From: Prevotella sp.
GTDB taxonomy: Bacteria > Bacteroidota > Bacteroidia > Bacteroidales > Bacteroidaceae
Direction of reading: 5' to 3'
Assembly (NCBI GenBank): GCA_017471245.1
Contig: JAFUVB010000104.1
Location: 1 to 36,432 of the forward strand
DNA: 36,432 bases
In this document: piece by piece, positions 879 to 24,417 of the stretch
Layout of the letters: each line of letters starts with the position of its first letter
Position numbering within the stretch: position 1 is the first letter of the stretch
Notes under the pieces: generated by a model
What the model was told of the DNA's origin: nothing
The model's input: the letters and a program-made list of their open reading frames with translations, nothing else
The model's database searches: none
Translations under genes and position numbers: made by a program

Positions 879-961
879 CAAATCAAATTGATTTACCGCG
901 CAAATCAATATGAATTGTTTTTCAAATCAATATGATTTACTGAGCAAATCAAATTGATTTA
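879..961. repeat. 22-bp-period palindrome array 1 (4 units)
   Basis: Four 17-bp units start at 879, 901, 923 and 945, exactly 22 bp apart, with 5-bp spacers (ccgcg, ttttt, ctgag). The first and last units are CAAATCAAATTGATTTA; the two middle ones are variants. Units 1 and 4 pair perfectly over positions 2-8 with 10-16 around one central base. The array lies in the non-coding stretch after the R-M gene. It is not CRISPR-like, because the spacers are only 5 bp. Confidence 0.9.
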
Positions 962-995
962 CTTTTCCATATCGCCGTTTTCTTGGCTCCGAAAT

Positions 996-1020
996 GCCGC
1001 TTTCGTGCTTGAAAAGCGGC
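996..1020. other. hairpin between arrays 1 and 2
   Basis: GCCGCTTT (996-1003) and AAAGCGGC (1013-1020) form an 8-bp perfect stem with a 9-nt loop. The related string AAAAGCGGCATT recurs in inverted orientation near 14041, beside array 3. The hairpin may therefore belong to a leader shared by these array elements rather than being a simple terminator. Confidence 0.5.
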
Positions 1021-1054
1021 GCTTTTCTTCCTTTAAGACAACACCCTGCTTCAG

Positions 1055-1137
1055 CAAATTAATATAATTTGCCGCGCAAATTAATGTAATTTACTTTGCA
1101 ATTTAACTTAATTTGTTCAGCAATTTAATTTAATTTA
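1055..1137. repeat. 22-bp-period palindrome array 2 (4 units)
   Basis: Units of 17 bp start at 1055, 1077, 1099 and 1121, again 22 bp apart, with spacers ccgcg, ctttg and ttcag. The core is AT-only in most units (first unit CAAATTAATATAATTTG). Where array 1 has C at position 6 paired with G at position 12, this array has T paired with A, a compensatory change that keeps the palindrome. The distance from array 1 unit 1 to array 2 unit 1 is 176 bp, eight periods. Sequence downstream of both arrays is also related (CCATA, then CCGTTTT, then GCTCC). Confidence 0.9.
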
Positions 1138-1333
1138 CTTTGCCATAGCTCCGTTTTTAAAGCTCCAAAATGGTGCTATCGCATGCAAAAAACGCCGATT
1201 TCATCGAATTGTTTTTGTGCTTTATATGTGAGATCAACAGTTCTCGCAATCATTTTTTTCGAGTAAATGTTTGGGGATTCGAGTAAATGACAGTATCTTG
1301 CAGTTGGAAACAAATAGTTTAACCAGATATAGC

Positions 1334-20804: not shown

Positions 20805-23800
20805 ATGAGCATGAAAAGCCTCTATGCAGGACTGATTTTCCTGTCTGTTCCTATGCTATTGCAAGCCCAGCAGCACGACTGGGAGAACCAACAGATACTC
20901 CAAATCAACCGCGAACCGGCGCGCGCCGCGTTCTTTCCCTATCATCGGCAGGCGGGCGACTGCCAGTATTCGCTGAACGGAGCATGGAAATTCAACTGGA
21001 CAAAGACACCCGACGAGCAGCCGGAAGGCTTCTTCATGCCCGATTTTGACGACTCTTCATGGACCACATTCCCCGTTCCCGGCGACTGGGAGATGCATGG
21101 CTACGGCACGCCGATATATAGCAGCAGCGGCTATACGTTCAAAATCAATCCGCCATACGTGATGGGCGAGCCGAAGAAAACGTATACCGCCTACGTGGAG
21201 AGGAACCCCACCGGCGTGTATCGCCGCACGTTCACCGTTCCCGAAGCATGGAAAGGCAAGGAGGTTTTCATCCGATTGGGGTCGGTGAGCAGTGCTTTCT
21301 ATCTCTGGGTGAATGGAAAACGCGTGGGCTATTCACAGGGAAGCATGGAGCCGGCCGAATTTCGGCTGACCGATTTTCTGCACAATGGCGACAACCAGAT
21401 TACGCTTCAGGTGTTCAAATACTCCGATGGCAGCTATTTGGAAGACCAGGACATGTGGCGCATAGCGGGCATTCACCGCGACATCACCTTGTTTTCAACG
21501 CCGCAGATACGCATTCGCGACTTCGGCGTGCGCACCATTTTCGATGCCGACTATCAGGATGCGCGCCTCATTATCCACCCAGAGCTGGCGCTTTCTCCGT
21601 CGTTGCAGACCGGCAGCGATGCCTCGCGGCAGGTGCAAGGCTACACACTCAGGGCGCAATTGCTCGATGAAATGGGCGAAAATGTGTTGGATTCCACCCT
21701 CGTTGCCGATGTTTCCACCATGCTAAACCTTGACCATAAGGCAGCAATTATGAACGACCGCAACCCCCAAAGGGGATACCCCAAATGGGGGTGGCTATCC
21801 TGCGTGGTCAGCAAACCGCACCACTGGACCGCCGAAACACCTTATTTATATGTGTTGAGGCTCTCGTTGGTCGACGCCAACGGCGAAGTGGTGGAGCAGG
21901 TGAGCACGAAAATAGGCTTCCGTCAGTTGGAAATACGCGACGGAATGTTCCTTGTCAACGGCCGGCAGGTGCGCTTCCGCGGCGTGAATCGGCACGAGAT
22001 GGATCCGCTGACCGGTCATGTGATGACCGAAGAGCGCATGTTGCAGGACATCCTGCTGATGAAACGCGCCAACATCAACGCCGTGCGCACATGCCATTAT
22101 CCCAACACTGAGCGATGGTATGAGCTGTGCGACTCGCTCGGTCTCTACGTGATGGACGAGGCAGACATAGAGGAACACGGGCTCAGAGGGCAGTTGGCGA
22201 GCGACCCTTCGTGGGCTCCTGCCTGGATAGACCGCACGCAACGGCTCGTGATTCGCGACAGAAACCACCCGTCGGTGGTGTTCTGGAGCCTCGGAAACGA
22301 AGCCGGGTGGGGCACAAACTTCGCTTTGACAGCCGCCTGGATACATGAATACGACCCAACGCGCTTTGTTCACTACGAAGGAGCGCAGCTGACGGGCGGC
22401 CGCGACTACCGCAACGATGCGGCAGATGCCATTGAGCGCGACCCGCAGAGCGTGGATGTGATATCGCGATTCTACCCCCGCACGCAGGACGAATACCTGA
22501 ATCCCGGCGTGAAAGACAACAATATGGAGCGGCCGGAGAATGCCCGTTGGGAGCGATTGCTGTCGATTGCGCGCAGCAAAACCGACTCGCGCCCCGTGCT
22601 TACCAGCGAATATGCCCACGTAATGGGCAATGCGCTGGGCAATCTGCGTGAGTATTGGGACGAGATATATAGTCATCCGCGCATGCTGGGCGGCTTTATC
22701 TGGGAGTGGGCAGACGAAGGAATCTTCGCCAAACGTCTTGCCGACGGCAGCGGAACGATGGTTCCCGTGAACGCGCGCGGCAGGAAAACCACCGCGAAAC
22801 AGTATGTAGCCTACGGCGGCGACTTCGGTGATGCGCCCAACCTGAAGGCATTTTGCGTGAAGGGAGTGGTGACTTCCGACCGCAAGACCACCCCTAAATA
22901 CGACGAAGTGAAGGCTGTTTATGCGCCCCTTTGGTTCACTTATCGCGACGGAAAGGTGGAAACCACGGTGCGCGACAACCATATTTCGCTCAGCGACTAT
23001 GACATCACGCAGACCACGCAGGGCGGTTTTCTCATGGTGACAGCCACGCTCAAGGCCGACAAACCATGGGCGCCGCGCGGTCATATCGTGGCTCAGCAGC
23101 AGTTCAAACTGACAGGCGGCGATGCCGAAGCAGCTGCCAAGACAGGCAGAAGCACAGCCAAGACCGACGGAAGCGCAGCCCAGACAGGCGGAAACGCAAC
23201 TCAGACCATGGCGCAACTGAAGAAACAAACCGGTTTGAGCTATCAACTGCGCAAGGACAGAGCCATTGCCTCGCCCGTGGAACATGTGTTTCCGCATTTC
23301 TTCCGACCGCCAACCGACAACGATAAGGGCTTTGGCAGCTGGATTGCAAAGGACTGGAAGAACCAAGAATTAGACAAAATGCGCGATTCCATCGTGGTTT
23401 CTGCCACCGAGAAGACGCTTGCCGACGGTGCCATAGAGCGCTCGTCGGTGCACGAATACAAAGCTCTGTACGGCAGCATACGCACCACTTACAGCACCGT
23501 GACCCACAAATCGGGCGAGATCGACTTCACTGCCACCTATCAGCAGCAGGGACAATTGCCGCCGTTGCCATGCTTGGGAAACACCTTTATGCTGCCAAAC
23601 AGTCTGCAAAACATTGAATACTACGGGCGCGGACCCATCGACAACTATCCCGACAGGCACGAGGCTGCCTTCGTGAACCGGTGGAAGAGCACCGTGGAAG
23701 CACAGTATGTGCACTATCCGCGGCCGCAATTCAGCGGCAACCACGACGATGCGGCATGGCTGAAGCTCACCGACAAGCGGGGCAGAGGGTGGCTTGTGGT

Positions 23801-24056
23801 TGCCATGAGCGACGGCGAGCAAGGGGCAAACCCGATGGGAGCGTTCAGTTTCTCGGTGCTTCCCTACAGCGCGCAGCATCTTTACGAAACGGCACACGAC
23901 AGCGATTTGCAGGCCGATCCGGCGTTTGTCTATCTGAATATCGATGCTGCCGTGATGGGACTTGGCAACAGTTCGTGCGGTCCGGGTGTGCTTACGAAGT
24001 ACACCATCGACAATCAGCCGCTCACGTTGCGCATCCGCTTCATCCCCGTGAAATAG
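20805..24056 (+). CDS. GH2 beta-galactosidase, LacZ type
   Basis: The 1083-residue exported enzyme (signal ending MLLQA, then Q) has the full LacZ layout. There is a jelly-roll ([15 protein letters not shown], then [23 protein letters not shown]), two Ig-like domains, and a TIM barrel with [19 protein letters not shown] (acid/base E499) and [11 protein letters not shown] (nucleophile E602). The large Bgal_small_N domain follows, with [14 protein letters not shown] and [13 protein letters not shown]. It should release beta-linked galactose or a related sugar in the periplasm. Two oddities are a threefold 7-residue repeat at residues 778-801 and a G/C-rich hairpin-coding stretch near residue 320. 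The gene starts 29 bp after the fusion gene and is followed by a 458-bp repeat-rich gap. Confidence 0.93.
21763..21792. repeat. G/C-rich inverted repeat inside the LacZ-type gene
   Basis: ACCCCC (21763-21768) pairs with GGGGGT (21787-21792), and inside it GGGG (21772-21775) pairs with CCCC (21779-21782) around ATA. The encoded residues ([12 protein letters not shown]) sit just before the conserved [13 protein letters not shown] strand and look like an insertion. A palindromic element captured in frame is one explanation. Confidence 0.5.
23136..23207. repeat. 21-bp tandem repeat in the LacZ-type gene
   Basis: Three in-frame 21-bp copies (23136-23156, 23157-23177, 23178-23198) plus a 9-bp partial copy encode [24 protein letters not shown]. 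The segment lies between the end of one beta domain and the Bgal_small_N domain, probably as a surface loop. Confidence 0.85.
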
Positions 24057-24104
24057 TTTCCTCTTGACAGAAGTTGTGTAAAAACACCGATATTCCTATA
24101 GAAA

Positions 24105-24210
24105 CAACGGATTTCACGGATTTTACGGATTAAAGTCATGCAGAAATCATGAACATAAAAGATCCGTTTAATCCGTGAAATCCGTTGTTGTTAATCCTTG
24201 AAATCCGTTG
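24105..24210. repeat. inverted copies of a CACGGATT-type dispersed repeat
   Basis: CAACGGATTTCACGGATT (24105-24122) is inverted at 24167-24187 (a copy ending GTGAAATCCGTTG), and a third, degenerate copy lies at 24191-24210. The first two can form a long stem with a loop of about 45 nt downstream of the LacZ-type gene. I recall similar CGGATT repeats as common in Bacteroidota intergenic regions. It may end transcription, though the T-rich run is not adjacent. Confidence 0.75.
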
Positions 24211-24280
24211 TGGTTTCTTTTTGGCACGCCCCCTTTACTTATAAAACGCCAATCTTAATGTAGCAGATAGTAAACTTTAG

Positions 24281-24417
24281 TTTTTCAAAAGCTATGGTTT
24301 CGGGCTTCAAAACCTATGTTTTTGACCCTCAAAACCTATGCTTTTGACCCCTGAAACCTATGGTTTTGCGCCCTGAAAACATAGGTTTTGAAGCCCGAAA
24401 CCATAGGTTTTGAAAAA
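24281..24417. repeat. 22-bp-period palindrome array 4 (6 units) with outer 27-bp inverted repeat
   Basis: Six 17-bp units start at 24286, 24308, 24330, 24352, 24374 and 24396, all 22 bp apart, with spacers ggctt, accct, acccc, cgccc and aagcc. The core differs from the other arrays (CAAAACCTATGCTTTTG, TGAAACCTATGGTTTTG). The ends of the array are reverse complements of each other over 27 bp with one mismatch (24281-24307 against 24391-24417), so the whole block can fold into one long hairpin as well as into unit palindromes. It lies between two GH2 genes. Confidence 0.92.

What the first reader, a model, noticed from the sequence alone, without database searches (positions are those of the whole stretch)
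879..24412. A family of 22-bp-period palindrome arrays with fixed architecture but changing core sequence
Four intergenic arrays (879-961, 1055-1137, 13886-13990, 24286-24412; 19 units in all) share one build: a 17-bp imperfect palindrome of the form YRAA-N9-TTTR (a few units are variants), a 5-bp spacer, and an exact 22-bp period, about two helical turns. Cores are alike within an array but differ between arrays: the AATCAAATTGATT type in 1 and 3, AT-only in 2, ACCTATGGT in 4. Position 6/12 is C:G in arrays 1, 3 and 4 but T:A in array 2, a compensatory change suggesting selection on palindromicity. Spacer junctions (e.g. GATTT-N7-AAATC) can also pair. This suggests helically phased binding of a dimeric protein, or a structured RNA/REP-like element that homogenises locally. 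I know no named family with this rule.
Basis: seen in the sequence. Interest (0 to 1): 0.85.

Follow-up and report, generated by a model that had tools for sequence, protein, structure and literature searches.

The report
Phased operator arrays for HU-like proteins
Rumen Prevotella and related gut bacteria carry short DNA arrays in which a palindrome repeats exactly every 22 letters while its sequence changes from family to family, and sequence evidence suggests that these are docking strips for a little-studied group of HU-like DNA-binding proteins.

Summary
All four arrays (19 units) step by exactly 22 bp; 100 shuffles gave no run of 3 or more good units. Arrays 1 and 2 are blocks of one continuous array, 176 = 8x22 apart. 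The genome has at least 40 places of each of two families: type A, usually 4 units (34 of 44 clusters), and type B, usually 6 (15 of 28). Same-genus genomes carry 22-bp palindrome arrays with unrelated cores; 672 kb of order-level DNA gave none.

The key lead is a gene for an HU-HIG DNA-binding protein (PF18291). In four genomes a type-A array ends 85-98 bp before such a gene. Independently, 7 of 7 longer HU-HIG relatives found by protein similarity in Bacteroides, Phocaeicola and Parabacteroides have 22 as their single best upstream palindrome step, against 3 of 53 control genes; one of the 7 is weak. The Parabacteroides promoter array has 18 places in 7 records, itself included. Eight shorter HU-HIG-like genes have no array.

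Best reading: each family is the multi-dimer binding array of an HU-HIG protein. Binding is inferred, not shown.

The parts
835..878 (.). two degenerate GC-core units in 22-bp register before array 1
   Evidence: GTGAAGTGCCATTTTCC 5/8 pairs; TCAGTGTGGCATCTTGC 4/8
879..961 (.). array 1: type A (AAATCAAWTTGATTT), 4 units, step 22
   Evidence: recurs genome-wide
967..1054 (.). four units in the same 22-bp register joining arrays 1 and 2 (third one, GAAAAGCGGCGCTTTTC, is a perfect 8/8 palindrome; the others 4/8, 4/8, 2/8)
1055..1137 (.). array 2: type A2 (AAATTAATTTAATTT), 4 units, step 22
1143..1208 (.). three further degenerate units in register after array 2
   Evidence: 3/8, 3/8, 5/8 pairs
13886..13990 (.). 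array 3: type A, 5 units, step 22; its first unit holds the stop codon of ORF 11825-13888
24281..24417 (.). array 4: type B (CAAAANCTATGNTTTTG), 6 units at 24286-24412, with TTTTT before and AAAAA after

Best explanation
The arrays are rows of binding sites for HU-HIG proteins, a branch of the HU/IHF family (HU domain fused to a wHTH, Ig or glycine-rich part). One dimer would bind each 17-18-bp palindrome; two helical turns (22 bp) between sites would put neighbouring dimers on one face of the DNA, so that 4 (type A) or 6 (type B) dimers form one cooperative complex. Different HU-HIG paralogues would read different half-sites, which explains a fixed architecture with changing cores. One copy of the array sits at the HU-HIG gene's own promoter (autoregulation); the others are spread over intergenic DNA, over-represented between convergent genes, where they would act as structural or boundary nodes rather than as ordinary operators. 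SHOWN from sequence: the geometry, the spread, the promoter association in genomes of three NCBI families, and the reuse of a promoter array elsewhere in the same strain. INFERRED: binding, dimer per unit, cooperativity, autoregulation and any chromosome-organising role. The partner of type B is unknown.
For: (1) Type-A arrays end 85-98 bp before the start codon of HU-HIG genes in four genomes: G000 L051 (85), G034 L095 (94), G172 L354 (94), G409 L357 (98); Pfam HU-HIG E 1.5e-20 to 3.6e-24. That is 4 of the 54 type-A loci held (38 G000, 10 G034, 6 other genomes). (2) Found by protein similarity alone: all 7 relatives of the G025 protein L323 in the plasmid collection (H11-H17) have 22 as the single best step among 16-30 for four palindromes in the 260 bp upstream (20-24 of 32 pairs; 0-1 of 200 shuffles reach the value). 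Of 53 control genes of P. distasonis 3 have 22 as single best step, and none exceeds 18 pairs at step 22. (3) The P. distasonis promoter array (L375) has 18 places in 7 records, itself included, with no annotated feature under any of the 7 listed; the five places read all have 22-bp steps. (4) Step conserved while spacers vary. (5) Type-B arrays have defined, mirror-imaged ends: unit-1 right arm TTTC 12/14, unit-6 left arm GAAA 10/14. (6) The families listed for neighbour genes show no common function, and convergent regions are over-represented: B 11 of 26, A 10 of 31, baseline 11 of 86.
Against: Eight shorter HU-HIG-like genes have no array: L227, L288, L366-L371; two classical HU genes (L228, L331) have none either, and L139 was cut. 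At any step from 16 to 30 two controls reach 21 pairs, as many as L374, L377 and L378 and more than L372 (20); many controls lie inside a ribosomal operon. For L372 the best-scoring set is not the one I read by eye, and for L374 and L377 it is shifted by one unit. L323 scores best at step 21, and the L325 array (23 bp) is not singled out by the statistic. L372 and L378 were not scanned with Pfam. Co-variation of arms within an array was clear in only 1 of 10 arrays tested (L329, 2 of 120 permutations; the others 12/120 to 24/24). 50 of 54 type-A loci are not next to such a gene. No partner was found for type B; G025 alone has about six families in 100 kb, which needs many paralogues. Some 22-bp arrays are not palindromic (L204, L205). 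Type-A copies share flanks (L009/L015 97% over 186 bp), so copying as an element also happens. Classical HU has little sequence preference (recalled).
Confidence: 0.6

Rival explanations
1. A spreading minisatellite or MITE-like element, as BrickBuilt in Porphyromonas gingivalis: the array is copied about the genome, has no host function, and the HU-HIG promoters merely hold copies.
For: Type-A copies share 154-230 bp at 93-97% with unrelated outer flanks. In G034 the ends ATTG...CAAT recur, and the right flank of L094 resembles the reverse complement of the left flanks of L090 and L095 (read by eye). Type B has tens of places in G191 and G062 and about 16 in G202, but families are patchy in the genus (A 18 of 398, B 23 of 398 genomes, two candidates scored per genome). 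By coordinates only, three orthologous gene ends in G191 and G202 list no type-B match where one would be expected (40 candidates per genome scored).
Against: I saw no consistent terminal inverted repeats or target duplications at the copies read by eye (no formal test). Spacer length is kept while spacer sequence is not. Unrelated sequences share one step. Array-bearing HU-HIG promoters recur in three NCBI families with different array sequences.
Confidence: 0.2
2. A mutational by-product: hairpin-assisted slippage and template switching build and homogenise tandem palindromes without selection.
For: Blocks of like units within long arrays; hybrid units such as L285:303 with arms of two types; weak arm co-variation in most arrays tested.
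Against: Modal unit numbers 4 and 6, mirrored end units, one shared step of 22 with other steps rare, and the association with one gene family are not expected.
Confidence: 0.1
3. Structured RNA: each 22-nt unit is a hairpin in a transcript.
For: Palindromes would form hairpins; some arrays lie in tandem gene gaps.
Against: No Rfam match in the window at gathering cut-offs; type-B arms mostly mismatched at 6/12; all gene orientations including divergent; a G025 array between two opposed terminator-like hairpins.
Confidence: 0.05
4. Intrinsic DNA curvature or gyrase-type wrapping by phased A/T content, with no specific reader.
For: AAA/TTT are phased in type A and B; 6 of 18 arrays are predicted at least as curved as all but 5 of 100 shuffles (window array 4, L198, L217, L224, L324a, L204, wedge table recalled); convergent gaps are enriched.
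Against: 12 of 18 arrays, window arrays 1-3 among them, are not predicted curved, and only 3 of 21 show significant 11-bp A/T phasing.
Confidence: 0.05

Closest known systems
BrickBuilt minisatellite/MITE of Porphyromonas gingivalis (PMC4596501, passages)
   Same: Bacteroidales; dispersed intergenic tandem repeat of similar unit size (23 nt)
   Different: Described as 23 nt without spacers, with leader, tail and terminal inverted repeats in many copies and one repeat sequence; here 17+5 or 18+4 palindromes, step 22, many unrelated sequences, linked to HU-HIG genes
REP/BIME elements (PMC3733652, PMC6379681, passages)
   Same: short intergenic palindromes, clustered; BIME-2 cleaved and bound by gyrase
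   Different: REPs are tagged by GTAG or CGTC and GTAG ones are linked to RAYT transposases; no fixed 22-bp step known to me
Lambda-type operators: 17-bp palindromes in rows of three with short spacers (recalled)
   Same: unit size, row of dimer sites, autoregulation of the binding protein
   Different: one regulator locus in a phage, against tens of chromosomal places here
Dispersed sites of chromosome-organising proteins: parS/ParB, matS/MatP, Noc sites (recalled)
   Same: palindromic site read by a dedicated dimer, spread over the chromosome
   Different: single sites, not exact 22-bp rows; readers are not HU-family proteins
HU-HIG proteins, PF18291 / TIGR01201 (seen as family matches; the defining paper is recalled as Burroughs and colleagues 2017; the identifier I tried from memory was not held)
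   Same: the proteins whose genes carry the arrays
   Different: I know of no described binding site for them

Membership tests
REP/BIME | GTAG or CGTC tag at one end of the palindrome | tested here: not met
   either strand, anywhere in the 22-mer: GTAG in 0 of 196 type-A and 2 of 165 type-B, CGTC in 1 and 6; other families not counted; definition from passages of PMC3733652
REP/BIME | RAYT (Y1_Tnp) gene flanked by the repeats | tested here: not met
   one PF01797 match in G000 (C33); no period-22 palindrome array in the 3.3 kb around it
BrickBuilt | 23-nt unit without spacer | tested here: not met
   step 22 in 148 of 152 type-A and 129 of 137 type-B steps; some 23-bp arrays exist in G025 (L324, L325)
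BrickBuilt / MITE | leader, tail and terminal inverted repeats with target duplication | tested here: inconclusive
   shared flanks in some type-A copies; recurrent ATTG...CAAT ends and one inverted flank resemblance in G034; no consistent TIR or duplication seen by eye
CRISPR array | repeats separated by unique spacers of similar length | tested here: not met
   spacers are 4-5 bp, 6 in L325
HU-HIG target array (proposed here) | same array type at the promoter of an HU-HIG gene of that genome | tested here: met
   type A in 4 genomes; P. distasonis L375; no partner found for type B
HU-HIG target array (proposed here) | protein binds the array | not testable with these tools
   needs EMSA/footprint/ChIP
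Multi-dimer operator (works like) | spacing conserved beyond sequence, dyad symmetry | tested here: met

The most novel reading that the evidence does not exclude
Bacteroidales have a modular system of chromosome nodes: expanded HU-HIG proteins, each reading its own palindrome, each autoregulated by a four-dimer row at its promoter and each marking many intergenic places with the same 22-bp-phased row. The architecture is conserved while the code diverges, much like satellite DNA with a dedicated reader. This would be a sequence-specific branch of the HU/nucleoid-protein family with dispersed address arrays, the first that I know of.
Probability: 0.4. Interest if true: 0.9.

Novelty: new variant of a known kind. 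Interest (0 to 1): 0.8.

Why it matters
I know of no assigned target for HU-HIG proteins, which occur in gut and rumen Bacteroidota. If the pairing holds, it gives them predicted targets, explains a class of intergenic repeats by one rule, and makes the question 'what do these HU paralogues do?' testable with one EMSA and one ChIP-seq. It also offers a sequence code (half-site against the protein's extension) that can be read from genomes.

Tried and rejected
Regulon idea: 55 type-A and 49 type-B flanking proteins show no shared function among the 25 commonest families listed of 73 and 93. Intrinsic curvature and A/T phasing as the general rule: not general. RNA family: no Rfam match. Phage or plasmid origin: one type-A and one type-B pattern gave 0 stretches in viral contigs; array 3 had no match in phages or plasmids. 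Same-place conservation: G034 against G000 (10 type-A and 20 GC-type loci against 64) gave shared neighbours L094/L045 (ABC transporter, array on the 5' side in both), L095/L051 (the HU gene), L105/L018 (not the same junction) and several weaker matches; 14 loci of other genomes gave L354 and L357 against L051 (HU), L361/L066 and L363/L078 or L016 and one short match, not beside both arrays or weak. Viral HU-HIG relatives: 9 stretches matched a pattern, none confirmed; two phage records matched by tblastn (H9, H10) were not fetched. L325-type HU-HIG in the plasmid collection: none. Literature: searches listed no paper that I recognised as describing a 22-bp phased palindrome array of this kind or an HU-HIG site; this covers only the open library held. 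PMC4596501, PMC5771137, PMC6379681 and PMC3733652 were seen as passages; other papers only as search listings.

Weak points of method: the ORF caller was trained on window genes and fails on AT-rich genomes, so G023 contexts were not scored. In one search two of the four HMM seeds (L354, L095) were translated out of frame; rebuilt the model from open frames. Several counts rest on BLAST lists capped at 40 or 2 candidates per genome. I fetched 6 of the 8 hits (H4, H6 not fetched) and all 7. Ten type-A clusters without exactly 4 units were left out of the alignment; 14 of the 28 type-B clusters, those without exactly six units at step 22, were left out. TRF rows can count one array twice.
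Full report
Observation. The window (contig C73 of a 3.73-Mb, 114-contig genome G000) comes from a relative of Prevotella: the 80 closest relatives of one of its proteins are mostly Prevotella or Prevotellaceae assemblies, many from ruminants. It holds four arrays exactly as described: 19 units, 17-bp palindromes, 5-bp spacers, step 22. 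Shuffled controls gave no run of three or more good units in 100 trials. Arrays 1 and 2 belong to one continuous array: they are 176 = 8x22 bp apart and the four units between them are in register. Block pairs elsewhere in the genome are 176, 198, 198 and 220 bp apart (8, 9, 9 and 10 times 22), with two further pairs one base short of a multiple (L022, L013).

Genome-wide. Type A has 4 units in 34 of 44 clusters; type B has 6 in 15 of 28. No array lay inside a called gene; three overlap a gene end by up to 10 bases. Compared with intergenic regions of 200 bp or more in 400 kb of sampled DNA (convergent/divergent/tandem 11/21/54), arrays favour convergent gaps: A 10/9/12, B 11/4/11 (chi-square p 0.025 and 0.004). 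The listed families of neighbouring genes share no function. Type-B spacers are nearly free in sequence (78 distinct of 129, identity 0.34) but 129 of 137 steps are exactly 22. The 14 regular six-unit arrays have mirror-imaged ends: right arm TTTC in unit 1 in 12 of 14, left arm GAAA in unit 6 in 10 of 14, T-run before and A-run after in 10 of 14 each.

Other genomes. A core-blind scan for palindromes at a fixed step found step-22 arrays with unrelated sequences in same-genus genomes: G034 CGGAGGCGGCACCTTCG and ATTCCCACGGTGGGAAT, G023 GGGTAATTCAATTACCC (12 places in a closed chromosome), G016 AAATATGACGTCATATTT, G026 GTACGAAGGCTTCGTAC and TGGTACTCTTCGTACCA, and in G025 about six families in 100 kb. 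Other steps gave 0-2 hits each per set, except 33 (= 3x11, a harmonic; up to 6 in G025). G004 and G008 had none in 100 kb each. Order-level samples (273 kb and 400 kb) had none. TRF, blind to palindromes, points the same way: 23 step-22 rows in 400 kb of G000 (12-bp rows, 29, and 21-bp rows, 13, are also common there), 31 in about 1.06 Mb of other same-genus samples, 12 in the 768 kb (some probably in coding DNA), and 1 in 672 kb of order-level DNA. Some step-22 arrays are not palindromic (L204, L205). Types A and B are patchy in the genus: 18 and 23 of 398 genomes, with two candidates scored per genome.

The protein. Comparing genes next to arrays in different genomes showed one neighbour shared by more than two genomes: an HU-family protein matching Pfam HU-HIG and, above the curated cut-off in two of four, NCBIfam HU_rel. 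In G000 (L051), G034 (L095), G172 (L354) and G409 (L357) a type-A array of 4-6 units ends 85, 94, 94 and 98 bp before its start codon. I then went the other way. HU-HIG-like genes found by protein similarity, with no use of arrays, fall into two groups. Eight shorter ones (L366-L371, L227, L288; three of them, L367-L369, beside amidase, peptidase or 'smalltalk' genes) have no array. Relatives of the longer G025 protein L323 (203 aa from its start codon; I read its C-terminal part as a winged helix from the sequence and the family description, not from a separate match) were sought in the plasmid collection. All 7 hits (Bacteroides finegoldii, Phocaeicola massiliensis, Parabacteroides distasonis; five of them confirmed as HU-HIG by Pfam) have 22 as the single best step among 16-30 for four palindromes in the 260 bp upstream, 20-24 of 32 pairs. 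Of 53 control genes of P. distasonis 3 have 22 as single best step and none exceeds 18 pairs there; at any step two controls reach 21. In L372 the best-scoring set is not the one I read by eye. L323 itself has a four-unit array best fitted at step 21-22, and G025 L325 has a 23-bp TACCC-N7-GGGTA array that TRF and the eye see but the pair statistic does not.

The promoter array of the P. distasonis gene, next to rpsL, matches 18 places in 7 records of the same strain, itself included, with no annotated feature under any of the seven listed. The five places I read have step-22 palindromes in gaps between genes. The B. finegoldii promoter array L373 has only one other place in that collection. 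The P. distasonis case is the arrangement expected if one protein reads its own promoter array and dispersed copies.

Mechanism. Dyad symmetry fits a dimer, and two helical turns fit neighbours on one face. A modal number of units, mirrored ends, and spacing kept where letters are free all fit a defined multi-protein complex. Paralogues with different specificities explain why the architecture is fixed and the core is not. Binding, cooperativity, autoregulation and a structural role are inferences. Copies that share flanks (L009/L015) show that arrays also spread; selfish spread and function are not exclusive.

Against. 50 of 54 held type-A loci have no HU-HIG neighbour, as expected for dispersed sites but also for chance. 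Type B and most other families have no known partner. Step 21-23 variants exist. Some 22-bp arrays are not palindromic. Arms co-vary clearly in only 1 of 10 arrays tested. Controls come from one stretch of one genome.

Noticed in passing
window 24107-24215: Inverted pair of ACGGATTTCACGGATT-like stretches just before array 4; a like motif appears near arrays in L005 and L022, so it may be another dispersed intergenic repeat.
   Followed up: no
L204:13258-13700, L205:18678-18771, L207:16919-17029 (G000): 22-bp and 44-bp step arrays whose units are not palindromic, next to palindromic ones in L204; the step may be older than the palindrome.
   Followed up: partly
L200, L202, L209, L210 (G000): Dispersed 21-bp arrays made of heptamers (CTTGCTT- and CATTGACC-like), a second minisatellite class in this genome.
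   Followed up: no
L324:16415-16792 (G025): A 12-unit array lies between two near-identical terminator-like hairpins in opposite orientation.
   Followed up: partly
L366-L371: HU-HIG-like genes without arrays; in L367 and L368 a 'smalltalk' gene follows, and in L367-L369 an amidase or peptidase gene is near: perhaps a different HU-HIG group.
   Followed up: partly
NZ_OY725757.1 and sister records: PLSDB 'plasmids' of P. distasonis TSDC17.2-1.1 carry the ribosomal protein operon, so they are probably chromosome pieces labelled as plasmids.
   Followed up: no
window 23127-23207: 21-bp tandem repeat inside ORF 20805-24056, coding, not part of this family.
   Followed up: no
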